DNA from: Brachionus manjavacas | Lineage: Eukaryota > Rotifera > Eurotatoria > Ploima > Brachionidae | DNA length: 64,000 nucleotides | Reading direction: 5' to 3' | NCBI GenBank assembly: GCA_019054805.1 | Contig: JAHQIY010000002.1 | Coordinates: 124,001-188,000 of the forward strand | In this document: piece by piece, positions 35,981 through 63,749 of the stretch | Layout of the letters: each line of letters starts with the position of its first letter | Position numbering within the stretch: position 1 is the stretch's first letter | The notes under the pieces: generated by a model | The model's database searches: none | Seen by the model: the letters and a program-made list of their open reading frames with translations, nothing else | What the model was told of the DNA's origin: nothing | Translations under genes and position numbers: made by a program

Positions 35981-36892
35981 TTAATCATGAGCAATTTTAA
36001 AATCCTTTAATAAATCATCTTTTTTGTTCAGTTCCACTTTTAAATTCTCAATCTCTTTTATCAAAGCATTCATTCCTTGTTTGAGCTTATCTATTTTGGC
36101 TTCACACCGTCTCTCAACAGTCATTGTAAAACCTAAACAAAATTTATTTAATAAAAAAGATTAAAAATAAGTATTAGATACCATTGACAATTCTGATAAT
36201 CCTCCAAAAGCGAAAAATGGCGATTAAGCCGACTTAAATTAATAAAAAATTAAATAAATTATCATTTTTTGTTTTCAAAAAGAATTTTTCAAATAAATAC
36301 CTATCGCTGAAATAGCATCATCATGTTTTAGAACCACTATTTCAGCAATGAAACTAATAACTACGACAATGGCATCTAAAATTTCCAGCTTTGAATGTCG
36401 AAACTCATTGAAGACAAAAATTATCTTTAAAGCTATTTCGACCATAAAAATGCACAAAATCACAAATCCAAGATATTTGAAAACTTCTTCAGCAACATGG
36501 AGTGCGTGACTGTTGTTCTTATTTTCTGCTTCAATAATTAACTCAATGGTAACACATAAACTATCCAATATGACCATAACCACAATTGCCACATGCAGAT
36601 AATTAGACAGGAGAACCTTTCGAATTTTTTCTTTTATTGAAATATTTTGGTCATTGAGATGCAATGATGGTCCAAAAATGCTTTCCAAAAATTCTTCTTT
36701 TGACATGTTCAGAATGATGTTCTCTTTGTTCTTCTGAATATTTTCTTCTTCGATGGTATCATTTAAAGATTGCATATTGAAGGAATCTGTTGTCACTGAA
36801 TCCAAATCTGATTTTTTTAGTGCTGAATCGAAAACGTTTACCAGGCTGTCGGTAAATCTACTACGATTTTCGATAGACGATCCTCTGCTCAT
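35981..36892 (-). CDS. HVCN1: Voltage-gated proton channel, Hv1 type (gene A)
   Basis: Three exons (36301-36892, 36182-36232, 35981-36132) join in phase to 264 aa. After a ~95-residue cytosolic N-terminus come four membrane helices of a voltage-sensor domain and a C-terminal coiled coil (ERRCEAKIDKLKQGMNALIK), which in Hv1 makes the dimer. Equivalents of the human residues are D110 in S1 (selectivity, D112), E152 and K156 in S2, D173 and E184 in S3 (human D174, D185), and R205, R208, R211 and N214 in FRFWRIIRIVN of S4. The RxWRxxRxxN signature marks it as a proton channel rather than another voltage sensor. The only change at these sites is D185 to E. The S1-S2 loop (EAENKNNSHALHV) is short. 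A ~500-bp part is almost identical to gene B. Confidence 0.93.
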
Positions 36893-38699
36893 TTAAATAT
36901 TTTTGACAATTTTTAGACGCTGAGAGGTAAATATAATTCATATGACAGGCTTATCTTTTATTATTTTTTAAAATAAAATAAATGCACAAATTTTTCAAAC
37001 AAAAATTTATTTTGGACGGTACAAAAATTAAAATAGAAGGGATTCAAATGAATTTCTTTCGTGAAGAGAACTTTTTGTCAAATTTTAGTAGCCAAATTCA
37101 TTAGAATCCCATTTTTTTCTAATTCTGGTAAATGCAGAAATTTAAAGTGCTAGCAGGTCAAAAAATCACACATCAAGCACTTTTCAATTTTTTTTACTTT
37201 GATATTTATTAAATTAAGAAAATAAATTTTGAATACATACAATGATCTTCTTTGCTTTACAGTCATCAAAAGAAATTATTATTCTTTAATAAACAATTGA
37301 GATGATCATTACATTGATTGAATTCTATGTGCTAAATATCTAATTAAATTAAAGCGCTTTTTCCAAACTAGTATTTTTCATTTTTTTTAATAAATAATCA
37401 TTTTAAAAAATTTAATGAGCAATTCGTTGAATCACACTCTTAATTAAGTTTAAAAATACAAATTAATTAATTTAAGGATTTTTTTCTGCTAAATTTGACA
37501 ATTTTGTTTCAAAAATGGCATCTAAATTTTCTTCAATTTGAAATTTGATTCCATTTAGAAATGATGAGGAGAGAAGCAACTGTCGATGCCACATGATGTA
37601 ACACATACCTTTTCAACAAAAAATTCTTCTTTTTAAATCTTTCATATAAGTAACATGAAGGTTCTTGGTAAAAAAATATCAAAAAAAATAAAAATTAAAT
37701 TTTGAAAAAAGTAAACCATTTAAATTTTTAAAATTTCAATAAAAAATAAAAAAGTCTTACTCTAGTAAGATTTATTTGATAGGATTTTAAGAAGCAACAA
37801 ATCAATCAATTATTACATGAAAAAAGATGAATATATGAAAGATTAAAATAAAAAAAACTTAACCTTTAATTTATTCATCTTTATGATGAATAAATTTTTT
37901 TTTTCAAAAAATCAAATTATTTGTTAAAAAAAAATTTTAATGTTGTTTTATTTTATCACAGTATTAAAAATTATCAATTTCTAATCCTTATTAAATTCTC
38001 AATACTTACTTGATCTTACCAGTTTAAAAACTTAACTTATTATCACTGATTTTACAAATTTTTAACCATTTTTACAACAAAGAAAATAAATGTAAGTTGA
38101 AAAATAAAATCTAAATGAAGATTTGGCCTCTTCAATTAAATAAAAATGACAATGTTATTACTGATCACAAATATCAACCAAGTCAAAACAATTAAAAATA
38201 AAGAATTGTATTTGGATTTGGCAATCAAAACATTTGTAACCCTATTAATGTAAATTCACTTTTTCAGCAGACACCTATACAGTAAATATTTTGATAAATC
38301 GAAATCAATTCGGATAATAAATCGACCATTAAGCCAAAAATCTGAACGTTTTCAATTCATGTATTTATTGAATAAGATTTGGATAATAAATTTTTATTAA
38401 AAAATATTTTTTTTTTAAATTTTGTATTTGAGCTTATTAAAATTTTTAGAAATTCTGAATATTTGAAATTTTTTTTTAATAATGGCTTTTCTAAATTTTA
38501 TATCTATTTTTCTTTAAAAGTAAATTTATAAAATATTAGTCTCAGTTATAAAAAAAATATTGGTAAAGAGATAATTCAATATAATAGATTATTTTTAGTC
38601 ATTTAATTATCTTTAGTTTAATAGTCAATTTTGGAATTTTATCAATCGATCGAAGTCGATTATCAACACCAATTAGCTAGGAGTTAAATATCCTGATGT
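36893..38699. other. Upstream of Hv1 gene A, no gene seen
   Basis: AT-rich sequence with no exon or recognised repeat. It contains the presumed promoter of gene A, but I see no clear core motif. Confidence 0.5.
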
Positions 38700-38943
38700 A
38701 TTATTAGCTCGCCTCTTATTCTTCTTGTGAACAAGTCTGTAATGTTAGATGATTAAGCTTGTGTCCTTATGATCTGTTTTTCAGCTCTGGGACTAGTTTT
38801 GTCGCCCTTCTTTGTACATTTTAGAGTACTTTTTGATCGTCCTATAAGTTTGGGCACCAGACCGGCACTGCAAACTCAAGATGTATTTTTAGAGCACAGT
38901 AATTTCGATCAACGTGTGTAAAAGTCCATCTGATCATATCTAA

Positions 38944-39001
38944 CTTGAGCAAGAGAGGGGTCTAATGAAATTATAATTGCTAGACCCCTCTCTTGCTCAA
39001 G
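38944..39001. repeat. Perfect 21-bp hairpin
   Basis: CTTGAGCAAGAGAGGGGTCT plus A at 38944-38964 is repeated as its exact inverse complement at 38981-39001, with a 16-base loop. It lies within the decayed LINE. It could be a small foldback insertion or a template-switch scar. Confidence 0.8.
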
Positions 39002-39040
39002 AACGTACGTTTGATAGCTCATTGTGTCTTAAATGCCAAA

Positions 39041-39042
<2 letters not shown>

Positions 39043-39081
<39 letters not shown>
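39043..39081. repeat. Trinucleotide microsatellite (TAA)n
   Basis: About thirteen uninterrupted TAA/AAT units lie directly beside the hairpin in the LINE relic. Confidence 0.9.
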
Positions 39082-39085
<4 letters not shown>

Positions 39086-39619
39086 TTTGAGGGGAGCCTC
39101 GGGAAGCACAGAATGGAGCTAAGTCCTTCTATTTGGTCAATCGAATGGAAAAAACGGATAAAAAAATTAAAAAGGAGATTTTTATGAAAAAAGTGAAATT
39201 TAAAGATCATTTAAAAAAGATTCGAATATTTGAATTAGTGAATTGAATTTTGCATTGCAGTTTTTAACTGTGAGTACATTCCAAAATTGATGGGCATACA
39301 TTTTTTTTCGATGGGGACCATGTATTTGCATTTTCATACATTTAACTTTGTACACCACAATTTCGTCCACTTTGACAATTCGTCATGATCTCATTTAAGG
39401 GATGCTATTGAATCTGTAATTGTTGACATTATTTTTGTGTCGTCGGCGTACAGTTTGCCTTTATTCTTTATCCTTTCTGACATGTCATTGATAAATAACA
39501 CGAAGAGTAGTGGTCTAAGGACTGAGCCCTGTGGAACATCACTTACTACTAAAACGCTGCGCTACGCAGTTCAATTCTTGGTTTTCCTCCAGTTAAAAAG
39601 CTATCTATCTATTTTACAG

Positions 39620-40599
39620 TAAGCCTTTAGTTTTCGCAGATGTGGTTTATGAGGGAGAGAACTGGTAGACCGGTTCCCTAATACCGGTTTCAAAATAAAA
39701 CCGGTTTCAAGATTTTAAAGCTGTTTTTTTCGAAAAAAATTTTTTTTAATTAAATAGAGTTATAATTCAAAGAATAAATAAAAAAAAATGTTGAAAAATA
39801 TTATTCTTAATAAAAACAATATTTTGATTATGAATTTTTTGACCAAGAGTTCAAACACATTAGATTTTTTACGCTTTTTGGGTTTAATGATGTCCTTTCA
39901 TTTGTGATTGTTAATCCAGCTGCCGAAAAAGTTTGTTCGCAGGAGACACTAGTAGGACTAAAGCTTAAATAATCTCTAGGGGTTCTTTTTAAATATTTAA
40001 GGTTTGATTTTGACCACCATGCAATTTCATCGAAACCAGGTAGGTTTTCCCCTTTAGGCGAGTTAAGATACTGAATAAGCTCTGATGATAATCAAGTGTT
40101 CGTAACGTAGTTTTTTTATTTAATAAAATCCTTTCAATAATTGTCATTTATTTTTCGTTTAAACAAAAAAATTTAAAAAGCATAAAGATTTTAAAAAATA
40201 ATTTAGTCCCCTTTTTTATTAACATTTTTCTCGTTTGAGTTTGAAGTATCATTAACATTCGGACTGCGTTCCCTCCGCACCTCTCCTGATTTGTTTGTTT
40301 ACCTTGATTTAAGATAAGCGTTGATTTTTTTTATAACTTTTTTATTTAACAGCTAGTACAGAGAGTACAAAAGGATATAAGTATTATTTTCCTTTGTAGG
40401 TTTTTTTGCTATCGTAAAATCAACATTTAAAAATTTGTCGTTTTTGTTTCCGTAATGGGTCTATAGACTAAGGAATGACAAAACTTTAATTGGCCTTGAA
40501 AGGCCTAATAGTTGATTACATTAATTATAGTAATAAAAATAAAACAATTTAAATTTTGAATCACTTGTATTTTTTTAATGTTGGTTTCTGTGAGTGAAT
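39620..40599. other. No gene seen
   Basis: Mixed repeat-like sequence between two LINE relics. I see no coding exon or clear element ends, apart from a CCGGTTTC-type repetition near 39670-39710. Confidence 0.45.
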
Positions 40600-42065
40600 T
40601 TTAACAAGGAAAAGAATAATCGAGAATTGATCCTATTAAGGATTTGTATAGATTTCCTAATGTTTTGGGTTTAAGGCCACATTTTTTATTCGATAGATAT
40701 TTAATAATATTTAGTCTTGAGTTACAGCGCTCTTTTATCTCATCCAGCATTAAACTAAATGTAAGTTTTGAGTCTAATGTAATTCCTAAGAACTTAACTT
40801 TTTCTTTTAGATTTAAACTGTTTTCATATAATTTTAGGTCAATATTAGTTTTTTTTCTAGAGTTTTTTTCAAAGATCGTGTAGCATGAATTTTCAAAAGA
40901 CATTTTCATTTTCCATTCGAAGCCATTTTTAAATTTCTTTTAAGTACTCATTAATTAAGCTCTCGAGATTTCCTTTCTTTTTAAAAATGAAAAAGGTAGC
41001 TAAGTCATCTTCAAAAAGAAGAGAGTATTGGCTATTAGTCTTATTTCTTTTAGGTATGTCATTATTGAAAATGCTGAAAAGAAGCGGACTAATTACTGAT
41101 CCTTGTGAAACCCCTGCTTTAATTAAGTATTGGTCACTCAAATGTCCGTTTACTTTACTATAAAAGATCTGCAATCGAGAAATGATCTGATCCGGTAAAT
41201 AAGATAAGGAGGAAGATTAGTTTTAATTAGCTTGTAAATTAGTCCATCATGCCAAACTCTATCAAAGGCTTAAAGAAATGTCAAAATATAAACAGCAGAC
41301 TTTTTTCTTTCTATTAATAGATTCTACTACTTTTTGTAAAAGAAAATAAAGATTATCCGCTGTGCGCCTATGTTTTCTAAATCCTGATTCCTCATTCATA
41401 AGTAGATTATTTCTTTCAAGAAAATGGTATATTCGTGTATAAATAATACGTTCAAGTAACTTACCAAGGCAACTTGTCATACTAATAGGACGATAGTCAG
41501 AAGGGTCCTCAGTGGGAGGAGATTTCTTTGGGATCATAGTTATACAAGCTTTTTTCCAGGTTTTAGGGACATTACCTTGTTCCAAACTCATGTTAAAAAG
41601 ATGACTTAATTCAACTAAAGACTCATAAGAGAGATTTTTTAAAATTTTGTTGTGGATGTCATCTATACCTGATCCTGAAACTTCTTTTAACTTTTTTAAA
41701 GAGGATGCAATTTCTGAAACAGTAATTGGTTCAATCAGATTATTTAGTACATTATTTTTTTTTAGGAAACCTGAGATTGTATCTTCTATTTCAGTATCAC
41801 TCTCAGATATATCTAAATCTAAATGAAGACTAAAATTTGTCTTTAAGATGTTTCCGAAGATTTCTCCTTTATCTTTATCTGTATTGAACCATTTTCCATC
41901 TTTAATTAAAATGGGAATTTGCCTCGAACATTTCTTTGATCTAAATTTGTTTATTTTTCTCCAAAATGGTCTGCTTGATAATGTGTTTTTTTCCCATTTT
42001 ATTAAAAAACTCTTGCCAGTTTTGGTTCCAAAAATCCTTTAAATTTGAACGTAACTCAGATGTTA

Positions 42066-43937
42066 ACGTAATTGCTCGATTTTAGTGACATGTCACTATA
42101 GTTGGGTATTCGGCTAAAGTGACTATTTATCGAACACTGGTTTTCATTTTAACCTTTTACGACTAATGCGACATGTCACTATAGTCGAAAAAGACCTAAA
42201 AATGACGATTTTTACAAAATTTAGTGTCCAAGTTAGTGACATGTCACTAAAGTCAAAAAAAGGCTTAAAATATCATTTAAAAATTGTAAAGTATGAGTAA
42301 AAGGTTTAGTTTTGATAGATTTGTTTTTTTTTTATATAAATATAACAGCATTAATTAAAATATTTGGATAATAATCCAATCTTGTAATATACAAAAACGG
42401 CCTCAAAAATATCGTTAAAAGGCTTATAAAATGTATTGTATATTAAAAGGATGGATTATATATACCAAAATTATTTTTCCAAAAATATATTATAAAATTT
42501 TTATTCATATGGATTTTTATCTGCTGATTTAGAAAAATATTAATATTAAACTTTATTTAGTTAAAATTAAAAAATAAAATAAGTTAAAATTAAACTTTAT
42601 TTATAGCGGTTCTAATAAAAACGCAGCGCCAACGATCCGGCCGGTCTAAATCTGCCATGTCATGCCGTCCGACAGAACTGTCCGGTCTAGGCGTTCAATA
42701 TTTTATTTTAGAAAAAAATTTATTTATTTTTTATCAAAAATTAAAAAAAAATACTAAATATTTTTCATATGAGGATTTCTTAATGGGAGCTTATTATCCA
42801 AAATGAGTTATCATTTTGAAATCTTAAAGTAAAATTTTGCCCAACTAGGAAATTCTCAGGAAAATATTTATCAATTTATAATAAATAATAAGTATCTTAA
42901 TAAAATTGTATAAAATATTGAACGCCTAGGTCGTCCGGCAATATCTGAAGGTGTGGACGGCTAAGTCAGCCGTGTAAGTCGGTTAGGTCGGATGGGTCGA
43001 CTGGTAACCGAATATGTCGTGCATATTCAATGGAATTCAAAAGAGCCGCAATTAGGCATTACGAAACATTTAAAAATTTTACTTATAGTTTTATCCTTAA
43101 ATTTTATGTATTTGATTGATGTTATAAAAAGGGATTGATTGTAATTGTAACCAAACTAATTTAATTGGTAACTAAACACGCCTTTACATGAGAAACTTAA
43201 ATCAATTAATCAATTAATTTTTTTACTTATATTTTTTCAAGGATTATCTTGGGAATTTATTTTTAATTGTGTGTATGTAATTTCCTGTTCATGGAAAACT
43301 CTGAACATCCTGAACATAATTTAAATAATTTAAATTTTTTTGTCCAAATTAACATGTAGAAATTTCCAAGTCGAATTTATTTTCCAGATCACCAGCTCCA
43401 TCTAAGTCGCATATTTTTTAAAATAGTACTGGACTCAAACGTTTTTTAAAGGAATAGCTATTTTTAAATCTCCGAAAAAGATGCTTGTTTTCATGTGAAA
43501 GATGTAAAAACTGGATTTGTGGAAATTGTTTTCCAAAGAGTTTCAAACAAAATTATTCATTTTATTGACCAAACTGTAAATAACATAAAAATATTTTAGG
43601 ATTATTAGACAATAGCTTTTTTTAATTTTATAGGTCAATTTCTGGTTTTTTATTCTTGCGTAAAATTCGCTAAATAAAATAAAAAATATCTTATTTGTTA
43701 AACACTTTCTTGTTATCCAAACAAAAACTAATAAAAAATAGCTTAATTACTTAAAACATCATTTTAAGCCTTTTTTTGACTATAGTGACATATCACAAAT
43801 TTGGACACTAAATTTTGTAAAAATCGTCATTTTTAGGCCTTTTTCGACTATAGTGGCATGTCGCATTAGTCGAAAAAGGTCAAAATGGAAACCAGTGTTC
43901 GATAAATAGTGACATGTCACTAAAATCGAGCAATTAC
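42066..43937. mobile_element. 1.87-kb DNA element with ~190-bp inverted ends
   Basis: The element is bounded by ACGTAATTGCTCGATTTTAG and its inverse complement, with GTTA on both sides (42062-42065 and 43938-43941) as a likely 4-bp target-site duplication. Each arm contains several copies of the 14-bp palindrome AGTGACATGTCACT or close variants, and CGAAAAAGACCTAAAAATGA. These are likely binding sites for a transposase supplied in trans. I find no transposase frame, so it is non-autonomous. It inserted into the family-J LINE and is therefore younger than it. Confidence 0.8.
42610..43020. repeat. GC-rich inverted arms nested in the DNA element
   Basis: TCTAGGCGTTCAATATTTTA near 42685 is matched by its inverse complement near 42915. 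Outside these arms are GC-rich stretches (CGATCCGGCCGGTCTA, then GTCGTCCGG and GTCGGATGGGTCGACTGG) that stand out in AT-rich surroundings. This may be a second small element inside the first. Confidence 0.5.
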
Positions 43938-44967: not shown

Positions 44968-45150
44968 TCAAGATTTTTATTTTTATGTGACTTAAAAATC
45001 ATTAATTTGTTGTAAAAATAATTGATTAGTCAATCAAAAAGTATTTTTGTCACTCAAATCATTATTTTATCAGTCAATTAATTTATTTGTCATCAAATGT
45101 AGTTTTTTTGTCAGTCCATTAATTGATGGCTTTAATGAATTAAAAGTTTT
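44968..45150 (-). repeat. TGACAAA-rich interspersed repeat, copy 1
   Basis: The minus strand reads CTGACAAAAAAACTACATTT, then GACAAATAAATTAATTGACT, and so on. This is the same order of phrases as 51255-51478 on the plus strand. Short TGACAAAxAA units recur inside. It lies downstream of Hv1 gene B. Confidence 0.55.
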
Positions 45151-45381
45151 TTATTTTTCAATTATTTATTTAAAGATTTTAAAAAAGTAAAAAATTAACT
45201 TAAAATAGATTGTTTGATATTTAACTTATTTTTGGCTTGTTATTAATAAGAATTAAAAAAAAAGTTTTTTTTTGAAAAAGATTTTTTGATTTAAAACCAT
45301 ATTAGCATACTTCGAAGAATAAAAAATTATTCGTCAGATTTTAACATCTTTTTTTTCGATCTTATTGTTTAAAAAGTCTTT

Positions 45382-46087
45382 TTAGTTGCCAATGTTTCCT
45401 TTGCTTTTCAATTCTTCTTCCAAAACCGCTATGCGATTGTTTAAAATCTCTATATTCTGATTAAGTTTTAAAATTTTTGATTCACATTGATCTTCGACAA
45501 CCAAAACAAAGCCTGGATAAAGTTTTTTTTGTTTTTCGTAATAAATAAATGTAAAATTTACCATTGACAATTCTGATAATCCTCCAAAAGCGAAAAATGG
45601 CGATTAAGCCGACTAAAAATAAAAACAAAATTAAATATATTATCATTTTTTGTTTTCAAAAAGAATTTTTCAAATAAATACCTATCGCAGAAATAGCATC
45701 ATCATGTTTTAGAACCACTATTTCAGCAATGAAACTAATAACTACGACAATGGCGTCTAAAATTTCCAGCTTTGAATGTCGAAACTCATTGAAGACAAAA
45801 ATTATCTTTAAAGCTATTTCGACCATAAAAATGCACAAAATCACAAATCCAAGATATTTGAAAACTTCTTCAGCAACATGGAGTGCGTGACTGTTGTTCT
45901 TATTTTCTGCTTCAATAATTAACTCAATGGTAACACATAAACTATCCAATATGACCATAACCACAATTGCCACATGCAGATAATTAGACAGGAGAACCTT
46001 TCGAATTTTTTCTTTTATTGAAATATTTTGGTCATTGAGATGCAATGATGGTCCAAAAATTCTTAATAAAAAATTTTTTTTGGACAT
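45382..46087 (-). CDS. HVCN1: Voltage-gated proton channel, Hv1 type (gene B)
   Basis: Three exons (45682-46087, 45562-45612, 45382-45512) join in phase to 195 aa. The four-helix domain is practically that of gene A (D48, E90, K94, D111, E122, then R143, R146, R149 and N152 in FRFWRIIRIVN). The N-terminus is reduced to about 33 residues (MSKKNFLLRIFGP) and the C-terminal coiled coil is unrelated in detail (DQCESKILKLNQNIEILNNR). Only exon 2, intron 1 and most of exon 1 match gene A, so the shared block looks recent while the ends are B's own. An in-frame TGA lies just upstream of the ATG. It lies 149 bp downstream of gene C on the same strand. Confidence 0.9.
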
Positions 46088-46236
46088 GTTTTTAAATCAA
46101 AATTAAATCAAATTTATTTAAGGAAATACTCAAAATTTTAGCAAGAAAAAACTTCTTTTATTACTCAAATATTTTAAAGCACCTTTTGAAATTAATTTTG
46201 GACTTTAAAAACAATCTAAGCACAAAGATTAAACAC

Positions 46237-47319
46237 TTAAACTTTTATGCTTTTTAATTGCCTATTTTCTTTATTCAAAATTCCAATTTTCAGTTTCAAA
46301 TCGCAGTTTTCTGTGAGCAACTTGTCTATTCCTTGTGACTCAACTTCATCTTGTTCTCTTTGAATTTTATTTCCATTATGACTTTTAGCCAAAATAGACT
46401 TGATGTCGTCATATTCAGCATTCTTTTGCTCCAGTGCGATCCTCAATCTTCTAAGTTCTCTTTTTTTCTCTTCTATCTCTTCTTCCATCTGCCTATTTTC
46501 ATCCAACAAACATTTTATGTCTTTTTTTAAGCTATCTAATTTTTGAAAAACTCGTTTTTCAACCGTAATTACAATCGCTAAAAAATAATTATTTAATTAT
46601 TTAAAAATAAATAAATCTTTTCTTACCATTCACAATTCTAATTATTCTCCAAAATCTAAAAATAAACTTTTATTCTAAATAGATGCCAAATGGTCTAATA
46701 TTTGCCTGAAAGTGATCACTGCAGCCTCAATTTCTTTCACACTCTCTTTTTCTACGATTGATACAACTTCGAGACAGAAGCTGATCAAAACGATAATAGA
46801 GTCGAAAATTTCCAGTTTACTTTTGAAGAACAACTTAGGAATGAGCACTAAATGTAAAAAAATGGACAACAAAAAAAAAGACAAAATAAAAAGGCTTAAT
46901 ATTTCCACTGCTTTTTCCGCTTTATTAAAATTTTTTGCCCTATTTTCTTTGAACAAGATGTCCAAAACTATTTGCATTATGACACAAACGCAGTCCATTA
47001 CCACAAAGCCAATCAATAAGGCATGATACTTGTTTGATTGTATTACAAGACGAGCTTTTTCCAAAAAATGCATCTTGGAATTAAGACCAATGCTAGACCA
47101 CATCATGTCGTGAACGGTGCTCAAAATCTCCTTGTTTGTGAACTCGTTCTCATCATGAGGAAATGTTTCGATGAAGTTTTGAATTGATAGCCGAGATACG
47201 GTTGAATTGCGGGCCGCCATTCTTTGCATTGGAATTTGCAAGTGTCCTTGTGACTCTTTTCCATTTTTTTCATCAATTGCCCGATTTAGAAGATTTTCTC
47301 TGGCTTTTTGGTCATCCAT
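46237..47319 (-). CDS. HVCN1: Hv1-type proton channel paralogue, altered S2 (gene C)
   Basis: Exons 46706-47319, 46627-46655 (29 nt) and 46237-46577 join in phase to 327 aa. D109 in S1, D173 and E184 in S3, and R205, R208, R211 and N214 in FRFWRIIRIVN are present. The S2 charge pair is lost: human E153 and K157 correspond to S152 and H156 (LLSIFLH). E119 of human S1 is Q. The first intron has a GC donor (TTTCAG followed by GCAAAT) at the position where genes D and E have GT. The C-terminal coiled coil is about 100 residues long (ENRQMEEEIEEKKRELRRLR), twice the usual length. It may have different gating or assemble with the other paralogues. It is upstream of and close to gene B. Confidence 0.9.
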
Positions 47320-50029: not shown

Positions 50030-53000
50030 TCAGGAAACAGAATCAAAGTTTTTCTGAGTGTTAGTCATATGTTTTTCTAGAAGTAACTTATTTTGTTCTA
50101 ACTCTTCTCGTAGCTCTTTATTCTCTTTTGCTAAAAATTCAATTCTTTTTGTCAGAGTTACAATTTTTTTGGCAGATTTTTTTTCCAAAGTCACCAGTAT
50201 TCCACTCAGTATTCTAGCAACTCTCCACAATCTAAAAAATATAAATTAATTATCATTTACTAAAAAAAAATTATTAGAAAAAGGCACAATTGACTCAAAA
50301 TTTTATGAAAATAATTGAATTAGCCCATTCGTGAGCCTTTTTCAAATAAAAATGCTTCATCATTAGTTTTCATTTTAGGATTAAAAATTATTTAAGAGAA
50401 AATAAAATTTTCAAATATCCCAAAAATAAGATCATTCTCAGACAAAAGGATTTAGACTTGACAGTTTTCTTTAATGAATCTGAAACATGGTATTTTTTTC
50501 TACCTGAAAAACTTTCTTGCGCTTGAGGTCTTGATAAAACTAAAAAGATTTTCCTAGATTTAATCTTTTCTAGAAAGTTAAGACCTTGAAAATTAGAAAA
50601 ATTCCCTCATGAAGATATATGCGACTAAATTTTATTAATTTAATCTTCTAAGATTAAGCATTTAAAAGGTCTATTCTATTGTAACCTATTTGATCTTTGG
50701 AATATACCGTTTTTTAAATCAAATTTCCGTCAAAACATATATAAAATTACAAATTATACAAAATAGAATTTTATTGGAAAAAAGATGAATCTAAATGAAT
50801 AAAAAGAACATTAACTTGTTAAAATTTTTGAAAATCTTGAATTGTTGAAGAAAAGCTCAGATGTATAGGAGTTTGAAAAAATTAAAAAAATATCAATATT
50901 AACACCAGACAACTTGAAGTTCATGATCATGACCAGATGATCAACTTAATAGATTAGAATCTTAATAAAAATGATGAAATGAGCTTTTTTAAATTTTTTT
51001 TAATTAAACAAAAAAGTTAATTGTTTTGGTTAAAAAAAAACAAATCTTTTTTTTCTGGAAGATCTTTAATTAATTCTTTTTAAATATTTATTTGAAAATT
51101 TTAAACACAAATTTAAAATCCACATTAAGCTTTTCAAATTATGGCTTTAAATAGTATTTTAATATAAATAAAAATATATTACAGAGAAACATAGTTTAAT
51201 TTTGTATCGCAACATTTGAAAATATTGATTAAAATTTAGTTTTACTTCATAAAAAAGGCCATCATTTAATGGAGTGACAAAAAAATTAAATTTTCCTGAC
51301 AAAAAAGACTAAATATAATGAAAAAAATACTACATTTGACGACAAATAAATTAATTTACTGATAAAATAATTATCTGAGTGACAAAAATATTTTTTGATT
51401 GACTAACTAATTATTTTTACAACAAACTAATGATTTTGAGGTGACAATAAAAATCAAAATATTGAACTCTGAATAACTTTGAAAAGATGTTTATGCTATT
51501 GAACAAGATGAGGAGCTTCCACCTTTTGTAGATGAACTTAATGAAAACTGTTCAGAATATATTGACATTGAACCAAATGATATTAGTTATGAAGTGGTTT
51601 ATAATAAATTACAAGACCTAAATCAAAATAAATCATGTGGTGTAGACAAGCTTCATCCGCTATTGCTAAAAAACTGTGCAGAAGCCTTTACTGTTCCTTT
51701 AACTTTAATTTTCAGAAAATCGTTATCTAATTGTCAGCTTCCAAAACAATTCAGATCAGCAAGTATTACTCCGTTGTTTAAAGGTGATAAATCAACGGCC
51801 AGCAATTATCGTCCTGTGTCTTTAACTTCAATTCCGTGGAAAATTATGGAAAGCATTATAAGAACCAAAATGGAAGACTATCTTTATAAGAATAATATTA
51901 TATTTAAAGAACAGCATGGATTTTTCAAGAAAAAGTCATTTACATCTAATCTTCTGGAAACTCTAGATTTCATCTCAATGAGTCTAGACAAAAGTATTCC
52001 TGTTGATGTAATTCTGCTAGATTTTGCGAAAGCATTTGATACTGTTCCCCACAGACGACTAATAGCTAAATTGAAAGCGTATGGCTTTGATGGTCTGACA
52101 CTAAAATGGATTGAAGCTTTCTTGAAAAATAGAAGACAACGAGTTGTTCAAGGTGAAATTTTGTCGGATTGGGTTGAGATTTTTAGCGGTGTACCACAAG
52201 GGTCAGTAATTGGTCCACTATTGTTCGTTTTGTATTAAAAGATCTATTAAAAGGAATAGAGGATGTTGTTAAAATGTATGCAGATGATACAAAAATATTC
52301 TCGCAAACGGTATCAGAAATAAGTTATGCATTACGGTCATAAAAACAAAGAATTCGCTTATTTTATTAATGGTAAACAGTTATCAACGTCAGATACCGAA
52401 AGAGATCTTGTAGTTATCTTCAATAAAAATCTTAAATGGAAAAATCAAGTGATAGAGGCTACAAACAAAGCAAATCAAATGTTGGGTTGCATCAGGAAAT
52501 CATTCGCTCTTTTTGATTGTAAGTTATTTAGATCATTTTATTTAACTTTTGTTCGTCCTTTTTTGGAATTTGCTGTGCCTGTATAGTTTCCATTTCTTAA
52601 GTCGAACTTTGAGAATTTTGAGAGGATTCAACGCATTGCTACGAAGTTTGTTTCTTCAATTAAAAAGCAAACCGTATGAAAGCAGATTAAGGGCTTTGAA
52701 CATTCCAAATCTGGTGGAAAAAAGAAAAAGAGGTGATCTAATTCAATTATACAAGTTCATGCATGGAATAGAATTGATTGAAAAAAGCAACAATTTTTTT
52801 GTCACCAAAATCCAAGGAAGAGGTCACTGCTTCAAATATCACAAGGAAATTTCGAGGCTCTAACATAGAGATAACTTTTTCTTCAACAGAACCGCTAACA
52901 TATGGAACTCACTGCCAAATCAATTAGTTGAAGCCCCCAATGCTAACAGCTTTAAAGCAGGCATTGATTGCTGGATAAGCAGCAATCAATCCCTTGCAAT

Positions 53001-56000: not shown

Positions 56001-57603
56001 TATTGAAGAATTTAAATTATCTATAAAAAATAAGTATTTAAGTAAGTATTCAAAGCTAAATACACAATATTTGTTAGTTGTACAAGGTTAGTTTAAGTCC
56101 ATTTAGATTCCTAATTTTCTGTAAATCCCTTTGTTAGTTATTAACTGTTTTTTGAATTTTATTCCAATAAAATTCGCTTAGCACCATCTTTACTTCTTCA
56201 ATTAATTCCAAAATGTCTCCAAGCATGTTGAATATATTCAATGATTGAGAAATTCAACAAAAAACCTATAGCTTATTAAAATCAGGATAAAATTCTCTAC
56301 AAAATGATATACAGTACATCCTAAAACTAACTTCATCGATTTCTTTCCTTTCCTCTTCCTTTCCTCTTCCTTTCCTCTTCCTTTCCTCTTCCTTTCCTCT
56401 TCCTTTCCTCTTCCTTTCCTCTTCCTTTCCTCTTCCTTTCCTCTTCCTTTCCTCTTCCTTTCCTCTTCCTTTCCTCTTCCTTTCCTCTTCCTTTCCTCTT
56501 CCTTTCCTCTTCCTTTCCTCTTCCTTCTTTTTCCTTCTTTTTCCTTCTTTTTTCTTAGAGTAAAGAAGAGTAAAGAAGAGGAAAGGAAGAAGAAAGGAAG
56601 AGGAAGAGGAAGAAGAGAGGAAGAAGAGAGGAAGAGGAAAGGAAAGAAATCGATAAAGTTAGTTTTAGGATGTAAAAGTTCGCATTTTCATTACCACTGA
56701 GTACGAGAAGGCTTTAGGGTACTGGTCATTCATAAGGCAAAAAAATATTCTTTAAAAGAGCTTATTATTTTTGAAAAATAAATAAAATTCACATTGTTAA
56801 ATTTCATCATCTTATCTATATGAACCGCAATTTTTTTCTTTTTAAAATTTCGGACAACCATTTTTGACCACTAGTTAAAACTTTTACCAAAAAAAAATTT
56901 TTTTTTTCTTTAAAATCTACATCCAGTTTTTTTAACAACTTTTTTTGAATATCCTCATTTTTATGAGTCAAAAGACCTATTAGATAAAATTAAAAAAGAA
57001 TTACCTGAATAATGTCAATAGACCAGTTACTGTGTGAAGAATTTGTTTATTTTTTAGCAATATAATATCGAGTATAAAGCTCACAAAAACAACAATTGCA
57101 TCGAGCATTGCCCAAATTGATTTAATCAAATGATAAGGTATAAATATAAGCTTAAGAACAATTTCGAGGACAAAAAATGTAAGGATGCCAATGCTGACAA
57201 AACGAAGCGTGTGTTCTATTGAGGATAAAATTGAAATATCCTTTGTATTCAATCCTTTTAAGACATGGAATAAGTCTAGTTCTGAAGAAGAACTTTTATT
57301 GTTGATGGTGACTGAATTCCAGTGTTCTCGGTTATAGCTTATGATAAATTCAAGCATTAACTCAACAGAAATGCACGTACAGTCCATTATGACAAGCAAA
57401 ATTACCAATATGTGAAGTTTGTTTGAGTTAAGTATTTTTCTGATGCCATCTTTGGTAAAAAAATGCTGTTTTAGATTCATGTATAAGCTAGAGATTTTGC
57501 GATTGGATTCAAGCTCGCTGGTGCAGTCAGTCGAAAAGTCGTCTTGATTCAGACATGATTCAAGTTCGTCACTCTGTCTGCTGGCGTTGCTTTCTTTGGT
57601 CAT
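50030..57603 (-). CDS. HVCN1: Voltage-gated proton channel, Hv1 type, near-canonical (gene D)
   Basis: Two exons, 57005-57603 and 50030-50231, join in phase (801 nt, 266 aa) across a 6.8-kb intron that splits the first S4 arginine codon. D74 (S1), E147 and K151 (S2), D168 and D179 (S3), and R200, R203 and R206 in FRLWRVARILSG (S4) match all the key human residues. Only N214 is replaced, by S209. The S1-S2 loop is long (about 45 residues, including NNKSSSSELD). The C-terminal coiled coil starts directly after S4 (TLTKRIEFLAKENKELREEL) without the intron used by A, B and C. This is the best candidate for the ancestral, conducting proton channel of the cluster. The large intron contains an antisense-oriented LINE, an inverted-repeat element and a foldback element. 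Confidence 0.93.
50909..51240. repeat. Partial copy of the TTGAAGTTCATGATCA element
   Basis: It starts ACAACTTGAAGTTCATGATC and keeps interior phrases (CAAATTATGGCTTTAAATAG, AAAATATTGATTAAAATTTA) of the element at 9759-10439. The far terminal repeat is missing. It is directly followed by the TGACAAA-rich repeat. Confidence 0.55.
51255..51478 (+). repeat. TGACAAA-rich interspersed repeat, copy 2
   Basis: It contains GGAGTGACAAAAAAATTAAA, GACGACAAATAAATTAATTT, GAGTGACAAAAATATTTTTT and GATTGACTAACTAATTATTT. These are in the same order as the inverse complement of 44968-45150. Confidence 0.55.
51480..53000 (+). mobile_element. CR1-like LINE, 5'-truncated, fairly young
   Basis: An open stretch (51540-52238) encodes fingers and palm of a reverse transcriptase: NKSCGVDKLHPLLLKN, STASNYRPVSLTSI, motif A LLDFAKAFDTVPHRRL, motif B GVPQGSVIGPLLFVLY. 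Motif C (VVKMYADDTKIF) follows after a one-frame shift near 52238. Later blocks are TERDLVVIFNKNLKWK, FVRPFLEF and KRKRGDLIQLYKFMHG. The 3' UTR ends near CAATCCCTTGCAATGAAAAT. A few shifts break it, but the decay is mild. It lies in the large intron of Hv1 gene D, opposite to the gene's direction. Confidence 0.85.
53001..56311. other. Hv1 gene D intron, no further gene seen
   Basis: Very AT-rich sequence with homopolymer runs. A fragment GAAGTTTATGATCAA at 53036 recalls the terminal repeat of the 9759-10439 family. I see no exon. Confidence 0.5.
56312..56674. mobile_element. Foldback element with polypyrimidine satellite core, copy 1
   Basis: The left end CAGTACATCCTAAAACTAAC plus TTCATCGATTTCTTTCC is mirrored at the right by GGAAAGAAATCGATAAAGTT and AGTTTTAGGATGTA. 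The core has about 16 head-to-tail copies of the 11-mer CCTTTCCTCTT, followed by a shorter complementary purine arm (GAAGAGGAAAGGAAG). A TA precedes CAGT, as in Tc1/mariner-type insertions. It lies in the large intron of Hv1 gene D. The last bases of the right end have mutated. Confidence 0.85.
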
Positions 57604-59311
57604 CTTTCAATATTTTTTTATCATTTTTTTGAAGACAATATTCTGGCCTTTAATTCAATTTTAGATAGAAATTAATTAAGAATATTTGATCCCAATTTCT
57701 AAGATTCCAATCTTTGAAGATATCTCTGCATCTAAGCTTTTAATTAGATTTTAAGCATCGAGCGAAATAACAAGCTAGAGGATTTCAGATCCAAATAATT
57801 CCAATTATTTGCCAAATAAGAATTCAATTAGTGAACAAAACCAAGGTTTTATTATTCATAAAATTTATCAATAATTTTGGCGCCTGTTTTTTTTTCTAGT
57901 TTAATTATTTTATAAATTGAACCATCTAGCAAATACATTGAGAGATAAGAAGCATCGAAAATAATGCAAAATTTTTGTATTTTTGAGTAACATTTTTATA
58001 TTCCAATAAGCTTCTGTCTTATTATTATCATTTATTTTTGTTAAAGGTTATAGGATTACTCAATTATTTTTTTTATTAATAAATCTGTATCGATCTCTTT
58101 TTTATTTTATTGTGTTTATTTTTTCTTAACAAAATAAAGTTTTTAAATAAAGTCTTTTAAAAAGAATATTCGAATTATTTAAGATTAACTTAGCTTCTAA
58201 CATAAATTAATTAATTAATTAAAAACTAACTTGAATGCTACTTATTTTCTTAATAAAGCCAATAACATTGCCTGTGACCTTTACACAAAAAAGTCCCCGA
58301 CACAATGCTTTTTTAAAATTTAGTTTAATATGAGGTTTAATTTTTTGTGTTTGAATTAAAAAATGTATCCAATGTTGAAATAACATTGAAAAAGTGCGAT
58401 GTTTCAAATATTATTTTCAGTTTCAAAGTTTTTCGGGTCTATTCGATTAAGTAAACTATGGTTCACTTGCGGCAACTTGAAGTTCATGATCATAATCAAA
58501 TGATCAAAATTTAATTGATTAAAATTTTAATAAAAATGATAAAATTAAATTTTTTAATTTTTTAATTTTAAACATAAGATGTTTATTATTTTAATTTAAA
58601 AAAAAACAATTTTTTTTTCTCTAATTGACCTTTAATTGATTCTTCCAAAATCTTTATTAGAAAACTTTGAAGACAAAATCGACATTTAGGTATCCAAATT
58701 ATGGCTCAAATAAACGCTTTAAATGATATTTAAATATCAATTAAATTATATTACGACGAAATAAAGTTAAATTTTTGTTTTGTAAATTTTCAAAATATTG
58801 ATTAAGTATTCAATTTACTGCAGACAAAAATTCATATAATTTTTTATCTAATAATTGATTAAACAAATAATGTTTAGTAAAGTTTAGTCATTTATTTTAA
58901 AAAAATATCTTTTTTAAAATAATTATTAAATGAATTATTTTACTTTATTTATCATTTTATTCATTTTTTTTTAATTTATATTATTTAACTTTATTTTTAG
59001 TTTTTTCATACGTTTTTATTCTAAAGGAGCATTTGCTCGATAGAAAATAAATAAATGAATTGTTTTTAAGTTAAAAAAGAATTTTCAATATTTTTTCAAA
59101 TTTCCAAACAAAAATTAAACTCATTCTATTTTCCAGGTTTGGACTTGGAATTTTTTTTAATGACTTGGGCTTTAATTTACTATTAAACTTAGGTCTGCTA
59201 ATCTAGATTTATTAATTAATAAACCTAAATAATCATGCAGAATTGAATTATGGTATTTTTATTTTAAAAGTCAAATACAGTAAGTTCCATCAGCTTGTTC
59301 TACTTTACTTA
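57604..59311. other. Between Hv1 genes D and E; repeats only
   Basis: Apart from the inverted-repeat element at 58472-58920 I see no coding exon. A 62-codon frame on the minus strand at 58219-58407 has no recognisable content. Confidence 0.45.
58472..58920. repeat. Copy of the TTGAAGTTCATGATCA element
   Basis: It starts GCAACTTGAAGTTCATGATC and runs through CCAAATTATGGCTCAAATAA, ACGCTTTAAATGATATTTAA and TCTAATAATTGATTAAACAA. This is the inverse orientation of 9759-10439, and similarity is high over about 430 bp. The right terminal repeat is not seen. Confidence 0.65.
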
Positions 59312-59661
59312 CAGTACATCCTAAAACTAACTTCATCGATTTCTTTCCTTTCCTCTTCCTTTCCTCTTCCTTTCCTCTTCCTTTCCTCTTCCTTTCCTCT
59401 TCCTTTCCTCTTCCTTTCCTCTTCCTTTCCTCTTCCTTTCCTCTTCCTTCTTTTTTCTTAGAGGAAAGAAGAGGAAAGGAAGAGGAAGAGGAAAGGAAGA
59501 GAAAAGGAAGAGGAAAGGAAGAGGAAAGGAAGAGGAAAGGAAGAGGAAAGGAATAAGTGAGGAAGAAGAGAGGAAGAGGAAAGGAAAGGAAAGGAAAGGA
59601 AAGGAAAGGAAGAGGAAGAGGAGAGGAAAGAAATCGATGAAGTTAGTTTTAGGATGTACTG
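59312..59661. mobile_element. Foldback element with polypyrimidine satellite core, copy 2
   Basis: The 350-bp unit has perfect 37-bp ends, CAGTACATCCTAAAACTAAC plus TTCATCGATTTCTTTCC, flanked by TA on both sides. About nine units of CCTTTCCTCTT make one arm and purine-rich GGAAAGGAAGAG units the other. It can fold into a near-complete hairpin. It lies about 600 bp downstream of Hv1 gene E. Confidence 0.88.
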
Positions 59662-60256
59662 TACCTTGTCGAAAAACAGAAACAGAAAAAAAGTAACATT
59701 CAAGTTAGCTAATATTTAATAAATTAACGTTAGAAACTAAATTATTATGTATAAAATTTCATAGACCTTTAATAAGAAGAACATATCTTTTACAATTTAA
59801 GAAAAAATTAACTTTTCGAACGCCCGTTATAAGATTAATTCCACCAAAAAAAAATTCACTTCTTTTTACAGACAATCTGGTTTCTTTCTTCATCGAAGTA
59901 AAATTAAATATAAAAAAGAAGTTGCCTTATTTATTGGTTTAAAAGTAATGGAGAAGAGACTGTCCGAGAAAAATATAATAAAAAATTTAATAGAAATAAA
60001 TTATTTTTAGAAAAAAATAATCTCAATTATTTAAATAACTAAAATAATGAAGTGACCACGATAACTTAGTTTTAATCAAAATTTTTAGTTTATTAAATTT
60101 ATTCAAGTAAAGAAAAACGTCAATATTTTATTATGCTATTGACTTGCTAAAAATTTTAATTTTAAAAATTTTATATCATTATTTATTTTCAGCTTCCGAA
60201 TAGTTTCGTTTTACAGTTTTCAGTTTGAGAATTTTAATTTTTTAAGCTTTTAAAAT

Positions 60257-61020
60257 TTAAATTGTTGTCTGTTTTGTGTTGAGGTTGAGTTTGCTTCGAA
60301 GTTTTTCAATCTCATCGACTATGTAGTTGTTTTTATTTTCCAATTGAACAATCTCCCGTTTTACAATGGCATGCTCTTCTTTGTAGAGGACTAGAATTAT
60401 TCATGGTTTTATAAGCTAGTTTTTTTTTAAATTAGAAAATTCATCATACTTTTTGCAACAATTCCGATCCTCCATAGTCTAAAAAAGTTAAATTTTTTAA
60501 AAAATTAAAATTTATTTAACTCTTTTAAAAATAAAAACCTTATCAATGTAATTAAACTTATTACAGAGAGAACTTGTGATTTTTCGAATAAAAGACTTAG
60601 GTTGAGTATAAAACTGATGAGCACTGTTAGAGCTTCAACAATCTCGAATTGACGCTGTGCGAAAAGTTTAGGCACAAATATGATTTTTAAAATTATTTCG
60701 ATCATGAAAATTCCAAGAATTGACAAAATGAGAATCGAAAGTGTCTTATAGGCAATTCCAAAGTCAATTAGTTTTGGATGCTTCATTTCAAAATACATGA
60801 TTATGTTTTCGATTTTTAGGTGTTTTTTTTCTTCTAAAAATTCTTCTGATAATCTGACAAATTCACGATCTACAATCGAAAGTTCTGTGAGTTCTATGAC
60901 CAAAATGACCAATATAGCGACACAATTAATTATGGTCAAAATATTAACCACATGATTGAAAAAATTTGACTCGAAAAAATGTTTGGCATAGTCCGAGACT
61001 TTTTTGTAGCTATAATTCAT
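60257..61020 (-). CDS. HVCN1: Hv1-like voltage-sensor protein with altered selectivity and S4 residues (gene E)
   Basis: Exons 60539-61020, 60450-60478 (29 nt) and 60257-60390 join in phase to 214 aa. The four-helix plan and the coiled-coil end (REIVQLENKNNYIVDEIEKL) are those of Hv1. The key positions diverge: human D112 corresponds to N32 (TIINCVAILV), D174 to E129, D185 to N140, R211 to I167 and N214 to K170 (S4 reads RLWRIGIVAK). E108 and K112 in S2 are kept. In human HVCN1, loss of D112 abolishes or changes proton selectivity, so this may be non-conducting, regulatory or differently selective. A TTTATTAATTTTAG acceptor-like site lies 14 bp before the ATG. It starts 135 bp after the stop of gene F on the same strand. 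Confidence 0.88.
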
Positions 61021-61155
61021 TTTTAACTCAAACTAAAATTAATAAAGACTTTATGGTAGTAAAATAAATAAAAAAAATGTTTATTTTTAGATAAAAATAA
61101 TCTTCTGCCAAGTAATGGAATAAATTTTAAAAAATCTAATTTTATTTTTTTGCGT

Positions 61156-63749
61156 TTAATTTAAATGCTGTGCATGTTGGGTGTTAAATTCAGGCTGAAG
61201 ATATTCTTTTTGCTTGGTTTTGATTATTTTTCGAGCAAGTTTATCATTTTCATGGTCCAAAAACTTTATTGTTTTGTACAAATTTTCTACTTTGTTTTCA
61301 TTATGGGTCTCTATCATGACTACAATTGCTAAAAATTTTTAAATAAATTAATATTATTTTAAAAAAAAAAGTAATTTTTAATAAATAAAAGAGATTAAAA
61401 ATAAAGTATAAAAAAATAAGTGAATAATTTTCTTTATTTACTGGCTCCAAAAAAAATTAGAAATTTTTTGAAAATTTTCCTTAATCTGGCGCTTTAATAA
61501 TTTAAAAAATTATAAAAAAAACAAAATAATTATTTAAATAAAATAAAAATTCGTGTGTTTATTAACATAAAAATTAATTTTTTATTTTTTCTGTCTATTT
61601 CAGACAATAAATTTTAGAACTGATAAAAAAGATTTCTTGTGACATTTTGAAAATTTGATTGCTAAGTTTTTTTTTCTAGACTTAAATTATATAAAATCTG
61701 CTTTTCTCTATCAATAAGATCTTATTCCGATATTAAGTAAAGGCAACAAAAACGTCAAAAATTTTAATGTCAAAACTTGTGACATAAACAAAAATCACTC
61801 ACAATCTTATACAAATCGTCAACGATCTTAAAGACCTGGAATATCTGGAATATTAGAGTCAACAAACTTATTTTGTGACAAAAAATAGCAATTCTCCATC
61901 CATGTTCTTACACAACATTAGAGAAAAATAATTTGAAGAGCAAAAGAAACTTAAATAGATGTTTCAAGTTATAAAAAGATGATAAAGAGCTCTAAAAATA
62001 AGAAAAAGGTTTTGACTCAATTTAAAATTATTTAGAAATGTTAAACTGGGAAGGATAGTGTTCAGTAACGAAATGAAAATCGAACAAGACATTTAAAAAA
62101 GAAATTTTATGAAAAAAAATTACATCTGTAAATTTAAATAAGTTTTTTTAATTTTGTAACTTAATTTTACGCTATATTTTTCTTTCCGTAAGAATTCATT
62201 AATTTGGTAAAATTCACCTGTCAAGTTATTAATGTACAGCTTTATTCTCAGAAACCAAAAAAAAAGGGCAATAACTATTGAATGCTGAACTTGTGGTGAA
62301 TTTATGAAAAAATTACCCCAAATTTTTTTTTTTTTTTTTTTTTAAAGCCTTTGGGCTATCGCCCCTTCAGGGTTATGTTTATTAAAATTAAAAAAAAAAA
62401 ATTAAAAATTAAAAAAAAAAAGTTAATTATTACAAGTAAATTAAAGAAAACATAGTTTCAGATTCTAATTTTTGAGAATTTAATTTTACTAATAAAGAGT
62501 TTTTAAAAGATATGAGAAAAGGATAATAGTTGTGGCTCACAATCAATGTTAAATGTATCACTTAGATTAAGATCTGATTTAAAAATTGCCTCAATCCTTA
62601 AATAATAATCGATTTACTTTAAAAACCAACTTTTTTTCAAAACCGATTCTATATCTATAATTTTTAAATAAATGATTTTAGTAAAATTATTAGTAACAAT
62701 TAAAATAATAAATTTAATTAATTATTATTCTTAAAATGTGTTACAAATTACCATTTACAAAATAATTCATCTAATTTGGATTTAGTTTGAAATAGATTGT
62801 GAAATTTGAGTTCATTTTCTTCAAATTTTTTTTATTCTTTTGTGAAAATTATTTTGCATTTTTAAAAATTTCCTACTTAATCCAAGCTCTATACCACTAA
62901 TCCCTCTTGAAAATCTTGAAAATGTGAAAACCTTTATAGTTTATTATTTTTTATTTTTCACAAAATTTTAATAATAAAGCCAAATTTTTTCTTGTAATGC
63001 TTACCATTTATTATTTCAGTAATACGCCACAGTCTCAAGAGAGTGATTAGTCCGAGTATGGAATGAACAGTATGCTTTCGTTGGAATAAATAAATGTTCA
63101 AAATAAAGCTAAAGATCACTATAATGGCATCAATAAATTCCCATACCTTGACAAAAAAATTCATAGGTATAAAAATTGCCTTGAAAAAAAAATCTATAAT
63201 GAAGATTCCGAGTATAAAAGTTCCCAGAAATTTGAAAATTGTCTCAAGATAAATCAGATGGATTCTCAAATTAGATTCTTCAAATAAATGAGTCATAAAA
63301 GACGAATTTTGTTTGATCAATAAATGTGACTCATTCAATTGTACGGCATCACGGAACAATTCTTCTTTGGTCAAATGAAATTCTTTGTATACCAGAGACA
63401 ATTCAAAAAACTGAATCAACAATTCAATACTAATGCAGAAGCAATCTAGTGCTACCAAAAAAATTATCATCCAATGGTACTTCGCATTCAATTGCATCTT
63501 TTCCAACTCATATTTTATTTTTTGATAAGTGGTTCTATGCTTTTTATTATCGAGAAATTTTCTAAGTCCAAACTGAATTTTGGAGTTGCGTTTGGACTTT
63601 TTTGACCGCTTGATGCAATCTTCAATGACTCTTTGCTCATAATTAGTTTTTAATCGACAAGTGTCGGTCACTTGGTCCGCTTCACTTTGAATAGTATCTA
63701 TTTGATCGATTAAAATTTTGATATCTGATACTTGATTATTTGTGTTCAT
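61156..63749 (-). CDS. HVCN1: Hv1-type paralogue with an S4 glutamate (gene F)
   Basis: Two exons, 63005-63749 and 61156-61328, join in phase to 305 aa across a 1.68-kb intron after the S4 asparagine codon. D102 in S1, K190 in S2 and D207 in S3 are kept. The S2 counter-charge is D186 (human E153), human D185 is N218, and S4 reads LRLWRITEIING, so the third arginine (human R211) is E245. That replaces a gating charge with its opposite. The S1-S2 loop is very long (about 55 residues, including LTKEELFRDAVQL). The N-terminus is basic (IKRSKKSKRNSK), and the C-terminal helix begins with VVMIETHNENKVENLYKTIK. Unlike D and E there is no intron within S4. Confidence 0.9.
62310..62400. repeat. Poly-T run with a short GC-rich retroelement-like end
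   Basis: A run of T is followed by AAAGCCTTTGGGCTATCGCC and CCTTCAGGGTT, then A-rich sequence. In the minus-strand sense this looks like the 3' end of a short retroelement with its A-tail. It lies in the intron of Hv1 gene F. Confidence 0.4.

What the first reader, a model, noticed from the sequence alone, without database searches (positions are those of the whole stretch)
35981..63749. Tandem family of six Hv1 proton-channel genes on one strand
Six complete genes with the S4 RxW-R core and C-terminal coiled coils lie head to tail in 28 kb. HVCN1 is single-copy in vertebrates and present in one to a few copies in other animals I know of. A dense cluster of six points to local expansion and specialisation of proton extrusion or acid signalling.
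Basis: partly seen in the sequence, partly recalled or inferred. Interest (0 to 1): 0.9.

Follow-up and report, generated by a model that had tools for sequence, protein, structure and literature searches.

The report
Rotifer cluster of diversified proton-channel genes
A rotifer genome carries six neighbouring genes related to the voltage-gated proton channel, plus a seventh elsewhere; four keep the usual key residues, while three have changed residues thought to sense voltage or select protons, which makes them natural test cases for how such channels work.

Summary
Six Hv1-type genes lie head to tail on the minus strand at exactly 35981-63749. All models splice in frame, and all have R-x-W-R in S4 and a heptad-patterned tail. 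The genome is a Brachionus rotifer, probably of the B. plicatilis complex.

In a tree, the cluster groups with Brachionus and unnamed metagenome sequences and apart from vertebrate, sponge and bryozoan Hv1, so it looks like an old lineage-level expansion. "One to a few copies in other animals" is wrong: a review lists up to eleven Hv genes in a scallop and seven in Aplysia.

- A seventh gene (G) lies on another contig.
- Gene A has Glu in place of the third S4 arginine. Nine database proteins share this, and all nine Glu rows of the tree also have Asp185 changed to Asn.
- Gene B has lost the selectivity-filter Asp (now Asn) and the third arginine. Its B. plicatilis ortholog shares both changes.
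- Genes E and F share an almost identical voltage-sensor domain next to old, different coiled coils, which points to gene conversion.

Function is untested. C, D, E and F are probably proton channels. A probably has altered gating. B is unlikely to be proton-selective.

The parts
61156..63749 (-). Gene A (305 aa): exon 1 63749-63005 (whole voltage-sensor domain), exon 2 61328-61156 (coiled coil). S4 LLRLWRITEIIN: third arginine is Glu; human D185 position is Asn; S1 Asp kept; long S1-S2 loop
   Evidence: model; residues; PDB best hit Hv1
60257..61020 (-). Gene B (214 aa): exons 61020-60539, 60478-60450, 60390-60257. S1 selectivity-filter Asp replaced by Asn; S4 IRLWRIGIVAK (third arginine is Ile); no N-terminal extension
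   Evidence: ortholog P0018 in B. plicatilis has the same residues
50030..57603 (-). Gene C (266 aa): exon 1 57603-57005, exon 2 50231-50030 (S4 and coiled coil). S4 FRLWRVARILSG, conventional; the 6773-base intron holds a reverse-transcriptase ORF
   Evidence: the join across the long intron is inferred from phase and from the absence of any other S4 exon there
46237..47319 (-). Gene D (327 aa): exons 47319-46706, 46655-46627, 46577-46237. S4 FRFWRIIRIVN conventional; human E119 position is Gln; GC-AG first intron; longest tail (113 aa)
45382..46087 (-). Gene E (195 aa): exons 46087-45682, 45612-45562, 45512-45382. Conventional S1 Asp and S4 FRFWRIIRIVNG; starts 149 bases after D stops
35981..36892 (-). 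Gene F (264 aa): exons 36892-36301, 36232-36182, 36132-35981. Conventional; voltage-sensor domain identical to E
45559..46090 (-). Near-identical tract in E: with the F copy 517 of 532 aligned bases equal, a 305-base run without a difference, stopping at the exon 2/intron 2 boundary
36179..36709 (-). Matching tract in F
51483..52235 (+). Reverse-transcriptase ORF (RVT_1) inside the long intron of C, opposite strand
   Evidence: PF00078, 1.9e-19
41265..42038 (-). Reverse-transcriptase ORF (RVT_1) between E and F
   Evidence: PF00078, 9.8e-10

Best explanation
This is an old Hv1 (voltage-gated proton channel) family of Brachionus rotifers, expanded mainly in tandem, with at least seven genes in this genome: six here and one on contig C7. 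[quoted passage not shown] Three sorts are present. (1) C, D, E and F keep S1 Asp and RxWRxxR and probably open on depolarisation and let protons out. (2) A belongs to a recurring type whose third S4 charge is reversed (RxWRxxE) together with loss of an S3 charge (D185N). It probably still conducts protons, with fewer gating charges and altered voltage/pH gating. (3) B and its sister G have a neutral third position, and B has also lost the selectivity-filter Asp. B is probably not proton-selective and may act as a voltage-sensing partner subunit or conduct something else. E and F are kept alike in the voltage-sensor domain by gene conversion, while their coiled coils, and so perhaps their partners, stay different. 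Shown: gene structure, relationships, residue changes and their recurrence in relatives, and the near-identical tract. Inferred: conversion as its cause, all channel behaviour, pairing and physiology.
Confidence: 0.72

Rival explanations
1. All seven are ordinary proton channels; the changes in A, B and G are tolerated drift at a position of minor importance, and the family does what mollusc Hv families do.
For: Natural variation at the third arginine is known (Lys in fungi and mollusc Hv4, Gln in one fungus), and R3A in NpHv1 stayed proton-selective (PMC10377628 section 19). R1, W and R2 are kept in 7 of 7 genes here.
Against: Glu reverses the charge, recurs in 9 tree rows and goes with Asn at 185 in 9 of 9. 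B also lost the selectivity-filter Asp; replacing it with Ala or His made human Hv1 anion-selective (PMC4429351, passages).
Confidence: 0.35
2. B, and perhaps G, are non-conducting or non-selective voltage-sensing subunits that pair through the coiled coil with neighbouring gene products and modulate them.
For: Filter Asp to Asn and third arginine to Ile in both B and P0018, with 88% identity; intact frame and heptads in B; the same coiled-coil register as the other five cluster genes.
Against: No pairing evidence. G keeps the S1 Asp, and its heptad score is weak (68 of 500 shuffles reach it).
Confidence: 0.3
3. D and E form one gene for a protein with two voltage sensors (a natural linked dimer).
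For: A B. plicatilis gene model, P0002 (440 aa), joins D and E, and a donor at 46399 and an acceptor at 46061 in this window give the same in-frame join, 461 codons with the stop.
Against: P0002 lacks the S2 helix of D and has odd inserts at both S4 junctions, as a mistaken gene model would. In this window D has its own stop and E its own ATG.
Confidence: 0.08
4. E and F are an assembly duplicate or a very recent whole-gene copy rather than converted old paralogs.
For: 97% identity over 532 bases.
Against: Their third exons, 5' parts and flanks differ. The same two coil types exist in B. plicatilis (37/42 and 38/44 identical to their counterparts here), and within each species the VSDs resemble each other.
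Confidence: 0.05

Closest known systems
Hv1/HVCN1 voltage-gated proton channel (human, mouse, Ciona)
   Same: Four-helix sensor without a pore; S1 Asp in A, C, D, E, F and G; RxWR in all seven; coiled-coil tail; E and F are 46% identical to camel Hv1 over the VSD (54/118)
   Different: Third arginine Glu in A, Ile in B, Leu in G; filter Asn in B; position H140 is His in 0 of the 32 rows that group with the cluster (one is a gap) but in 11 of 11 outgroup rows
Mollusc Hv families (scallop 11, Aplysia 7; AcHv1-3, CgHv4)
   Same: Large expansion with unconventional members; natural changes in the S4 motif (PMC10377628 sections 11 and 19)
   Different: Mollusc changes described there are Leu and Pro in the first half of the motif (AcHv3) or Lys at the third arginine (Hv4); here the third position is Glu, Ile or Leu, and six genes sit in one 28 kb array
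Linked Hv pairs of Trichoplax and Schistosoma haematobium
   Same: Two Hv genes on one scaffold, <10 kb and about 270 kb apart (PMC10377628 passage)
   Different: Two genes, not six; no conversion tract reported in the passage seen
Saccoglossus Hv-like protein with Gln at the selectivity filter
   Same: Natural loss of the acidic filter residue, like B (PMC10377628 section 16)
   Different: That protein also lacks the S4 Trp; B keeps R-L-W-R

Membership tests
Hv1 voltage-gated proton channel | Isolated S1-S4 voltage-sensor domain, no S5-S6 pore | tested here: met
   Models of A-F and G; AlphaFold of A exon 1 and P0018; PDB sequence hits for A, B, C, D, F
Hv1 voltage-gated proton channel | Acidic selectivity filter in S1 (human D112) - genes A, C, D, E, F, G | tested here: met
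   Asp in 6 of 7 genes
Hv1 voltage-gated proton channel | Acidic selectivity filter in S1 - gene B | tested here: not met
   Asn in B and in P0018; B is Hv1-derived but is not filed as a proton channel
Hv1 voltage-gated proton channel | S4 motif RxWRxxR - genes C, D, E, F | tested here: met
Hv1 voltage-gated proton channel | S4 motif RxWRxxR - genes A, B, G | tested here: not met
   Third position Glu, Ile, Leu; RxW and the second Arg kept. These are relatives by descent; whether they are proton channels is open
Hv1 voltage-gated proton channel | C-terminal coiled coil - genes A to F | tested here: met
   Heptad score above most shuffles in A-F, weakest in C with 20 of 500 reaching it; a simple score, not a structure
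Hv1 voltage-gated proton channel | C-terminal coiled coil - gene G | tested here: inconclusive
   68 of 500 shuffles reach the score
Hv1 voltage-gated proton channel | Voltage- and pH-gated proton-selective current | not testable with these tools
   Needs electrophysiology
Mollusc Hv3 type | Proline before the S4 Trp (xPWRxxR) | tested here: not met
   No Pro in the S4 motif of A-G
Voltage-sensing phosphatase (VSP/TPTE) | Phosphatase domain after the voltage sensor | tested here: not met
   Pfam scan of A-F finds only Ion_trans or nothing; Hv1 chains outrank VSP chains by sequence for A, B, C, D, F

The most novel reading that the evidence does not exclude
The RxWRxxE type (gene A and nine database proteins) is a Hv1 whose third gating charge has been reversed, with D185N in S3 as its matching change. 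The Glu sits where internal pH can titrate it, so the sensor's net charge depends on cytosolic pH. The channel would then open mainly in response to pH rather than to voltage, beside a B-type partner that no longer selects protons.
Probability: 0.25. Interest if true: 0.75.

Novelty: new variant of a known kind. Interest (0 to 1): 0.5.

Why it matters
Whether the third S4 arginine moves to the selectivity filter when Hv1 opens is disputed (one-click versus two-click models, PMC10377628 section 19). A natural, recurring charge reversal there, paired with a lost S3 charge, is a ready-made test, as is a natural Asp-to-Asn filter. The E/F pair separates sensor from assembly domain: the same sensor, apparently kept by conversion, with different coiled coils. 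Brachionus manjavacas can be edited with CRISPR (PMC10395877, abstract start and passages), so roles could be tested in the animal.

Tried and rejected
Operon idea: A-B and D-E are 135 and 149 bases apart, which suggested polycistronic transcripts. An EST study of B. plicatilis found no trans-spliced leader (PMC1925144, abstract and passages), and G also sits about 150 bases after an upstream frame (read by eye), so close spacing is taken as normal compactness. This is not settled: that paper itself could not exclude trans-splicing of a small subset.

A natural two-sensor D+E protein was considered and judged unlikely.

More copies beside the window: none in C2:104001-124000 or 188001-228000 at E<=1 except one weak coiled-coil match, E 0.062.

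Foldseek gave no significant match for either model. The VIA-align second look showed voltage-sensor proteins in nearly all of its 50 rows for each model, led by Ci-VSP; it shows the fold but not the family, and Hv1 itself is not among the 50 rows shown for either. The bacterial-type promoter scan was uninformative here.

Literature: 'rotifer' + 'proton channel' gave 8 papers, none on this by title. 'Brachionus/HVCN1/voltage-gated hydrogen channel/rotifer' gave 1,598 with any two terms; the 10 listed have 0 occurrences of HVCN1 and of voltage-gated hydrogen channel. 'Hv1/third arginine/glutamate/natural variation/voltage sensor motif', any three, gave 7 papers; of the two on Hv diversity I saw sections and passages only. 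'RxWRxxE' gave 0 papers. PMC10377628 has 0 occurrences of 'rotifer' in its main text; its supplements were not seen. That is the whole basis for calling it undescribed, and most subscription papers were not searchable.

The last protein search returned 257 hits, of which the best 120 were listed, so the tally of S4 motifs covers the 140 proteins fetched in all, not every relative.
Full report
OBSERVATION. The window is bases 124001-188000 of contig C2 of a 114.2 Mb, 61-contig genome. Gene F is 95% identical to a B. plicatilis protein named voltage-gated hydrogen channel 1, so the source is a Brachionus rotifer, probably of the B. plicatilis complex; the species is not settled. Six genes, here A to F from high to low coordinate, were rebuilt exon by exon on the minus strand. 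All read in frame from ATG to stop; nine introns are GT-AG and one (D, first) is GC-AG. Gene C is joined across 6773 bases that contain a reverse-transcriptase frame. No other S4 exon was found there, but the join is inferred.

EXTENT. Searching the genome with A, B, C, D and F found one more gene, G, at C7:2317637 onward on the plus strand (model). It is 40% identical to B over the VSD (64/159). Flanks of 20 kb on the low side and 40 kb on the high side hold no further copy. Candidates per search are limited, so seven is a lower bound.

RELATIONSHIPS. A tree of 43 rows (41 different) and 136 columns, with the positions of D112, D185 and R3 masked, separates 32 rows (7 from this genome, 4 B. 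plicatilis, 3 B. calyciflorus, 18 unnamed) from 11 outgroup rows (4 vertebrate, 2 sponge, 1 bryozoan, 4 unnamed) at 100/99. I call the 32 rotifer-type; that the 18 unnamed rows are rotifers is inferred from their place in the tree. B+P0018+G, A+P0015+two metagenome rows, and D+P0002n are starred groups. The tool warned of long branches (C, P0024) and the outgroup lacks molluscs and annelids, so the claim is lineage-level expansion relative to the rows at hand. In B. calyciflorus, P0015 (A type) and P0005 (F type) are both reported from a contig of 26,845 bases. Equal length suggests one contig, and so a conserved cluster, but that is inference. At the H140 position the 32 rows have Lys in 24, other residues in 7, a gap in 1 and His in none; the outgroup has His in 11 of 11. 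H140 is, from recall, part of the zinc site of human Hv1.

CHANGED RESIDUES. It is Arg in C, D, E and F, Glu in A, Ile in B and Leu in G. Of 140 database proteins fetched, 129 have a scorable S4: 118 Arg, 9 Glu, 1 Ile (P0018) and 1 Phe (a bird model, P0123); 11 could not be scored. Of 43 tree rows, 35 could be scored at both R3 and D185 (8 are cut short): Arg/Asp 14, Arg/Glu 9, Glu/Asn 9, Ile/Asn 2, Leu/Asp 1. So each of 9 Glu rows (A and 8 database proteins) has Asn at 185 and none of 23 Arg rows has. The ninth Glu protein, P0025, was not in the tree; its sequence also shows Asn there by eye. This is one or a few events, not nine independent ones. In the best tree B and G fall within the Glu rows (12 rows together, 93/85); a tree with the Glu rows alone together is not rejected (p 0.564). 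B also has Asn for the filter Asp, shared with P0018, and the two are 88% identical over the VSD (140/159), which suggests that B is maintained rather than decaying; no dN/dS was computed.

CONVERSION. E and F agree in 517 of 532 aligned bases. A 305-base run has no difference, and no shuffle of 20,000 reached it. The two exonic differences inside the tract, read from that alignment, are synonymous. The tract stops at the exon 2/intron 2 boundary, after which the coil exons share 16 of 42 residues. B. plicatilis has the same two coil types (37/42 and 38/44 identical to E and F here), yet its E and F sensors agree in 124 of 126 residues and share two residues that differ from this genome; the other two variable sites do not follow that pattern. 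Repeated conversion of the sensor exons with divergent coiled coils explains this; a recent whole-gene copy does not. The B. plicatilis E sequence comes from the doubtful model P0002.

HOW IT WORKS. Established for Hv1 (PMC10377628 sections 11, 16 and 19 read): depolarisation drives S4 outward, the S1 Asp with an S4 Arg selects protons, and the coiled coil holds two subunits. Neutral replacement of D112 makes human Hv1 anion-selective (PMC4429351, passages, for Ala and His; that Asn behaves likewise is recalled). R3A in NpHv1 stayed proton-selective, and mouse Hv1 truncated between R2 and R3 kept voltage dependence. I infer that C, D, E and F are proton channels, that A conducts with altered gating, and that B is not proton-selective. 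Nothing here tests currents, pairing, expression or tissue.

NOVELTY. Hv expansions are known (scallop 11, Aplysia 7), as are linked pairs in Trichoplax and Schistosoma and third-position Lys or Gln. The passages, sections and searches listed under Tried and rejected mention no rotifer Hv family and no Glu at this position. I rate it a new variant of a known kind.

Noticed in passing
56310-56674 and 59310-59663: Two GGAAGA-rich minisatellite blocks about 3 kb apart that match in both orientations, with ends carrying the same sequence inverted (ATCGATGAAGTTAGTTTTAGGATGTA and its near complement): they look like a hairpin-shaped mobile or satellite unit (self-BLAST; ends read by eye).
   Followed up: partly
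16069-16442 and 17115-17488: Direct repeats of 374 bases, 99.7% identical, either side of an open frame of 199 codons on the minus strand; no Pfam match in that frame.
   Followed up: partly
20221-28466: A myosin motor gene on the plus strand (PF00063 in the two exons tested; outer limits from the ORF list).
   Followed up: partly
11141-11509: An exon with the start of an SH2 domain on the plus strand.
   Followed up: no
G000 C1:7.195-7.207 Mb, C16:447-456 kb, C23:223-236 kb, C3:7.56-7.58 Mb, C2:2.617-2.625 Mb: Ion_trans matches occur in several other dense clusters, so tandem ion-channel families may be common in this genome.
   Followed up: no
61020-61156, 46087-46237, L035 4488-4637: Neighbouring same-strand frames are only about 135-150 bases apart in three places; this may be normal compactness or shared transcription.
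   Followed up: partly
46061-46399: Splice-like sites that would join D to E in frame, matching a fused B. plicatilis gene model.
   Followed up: partly
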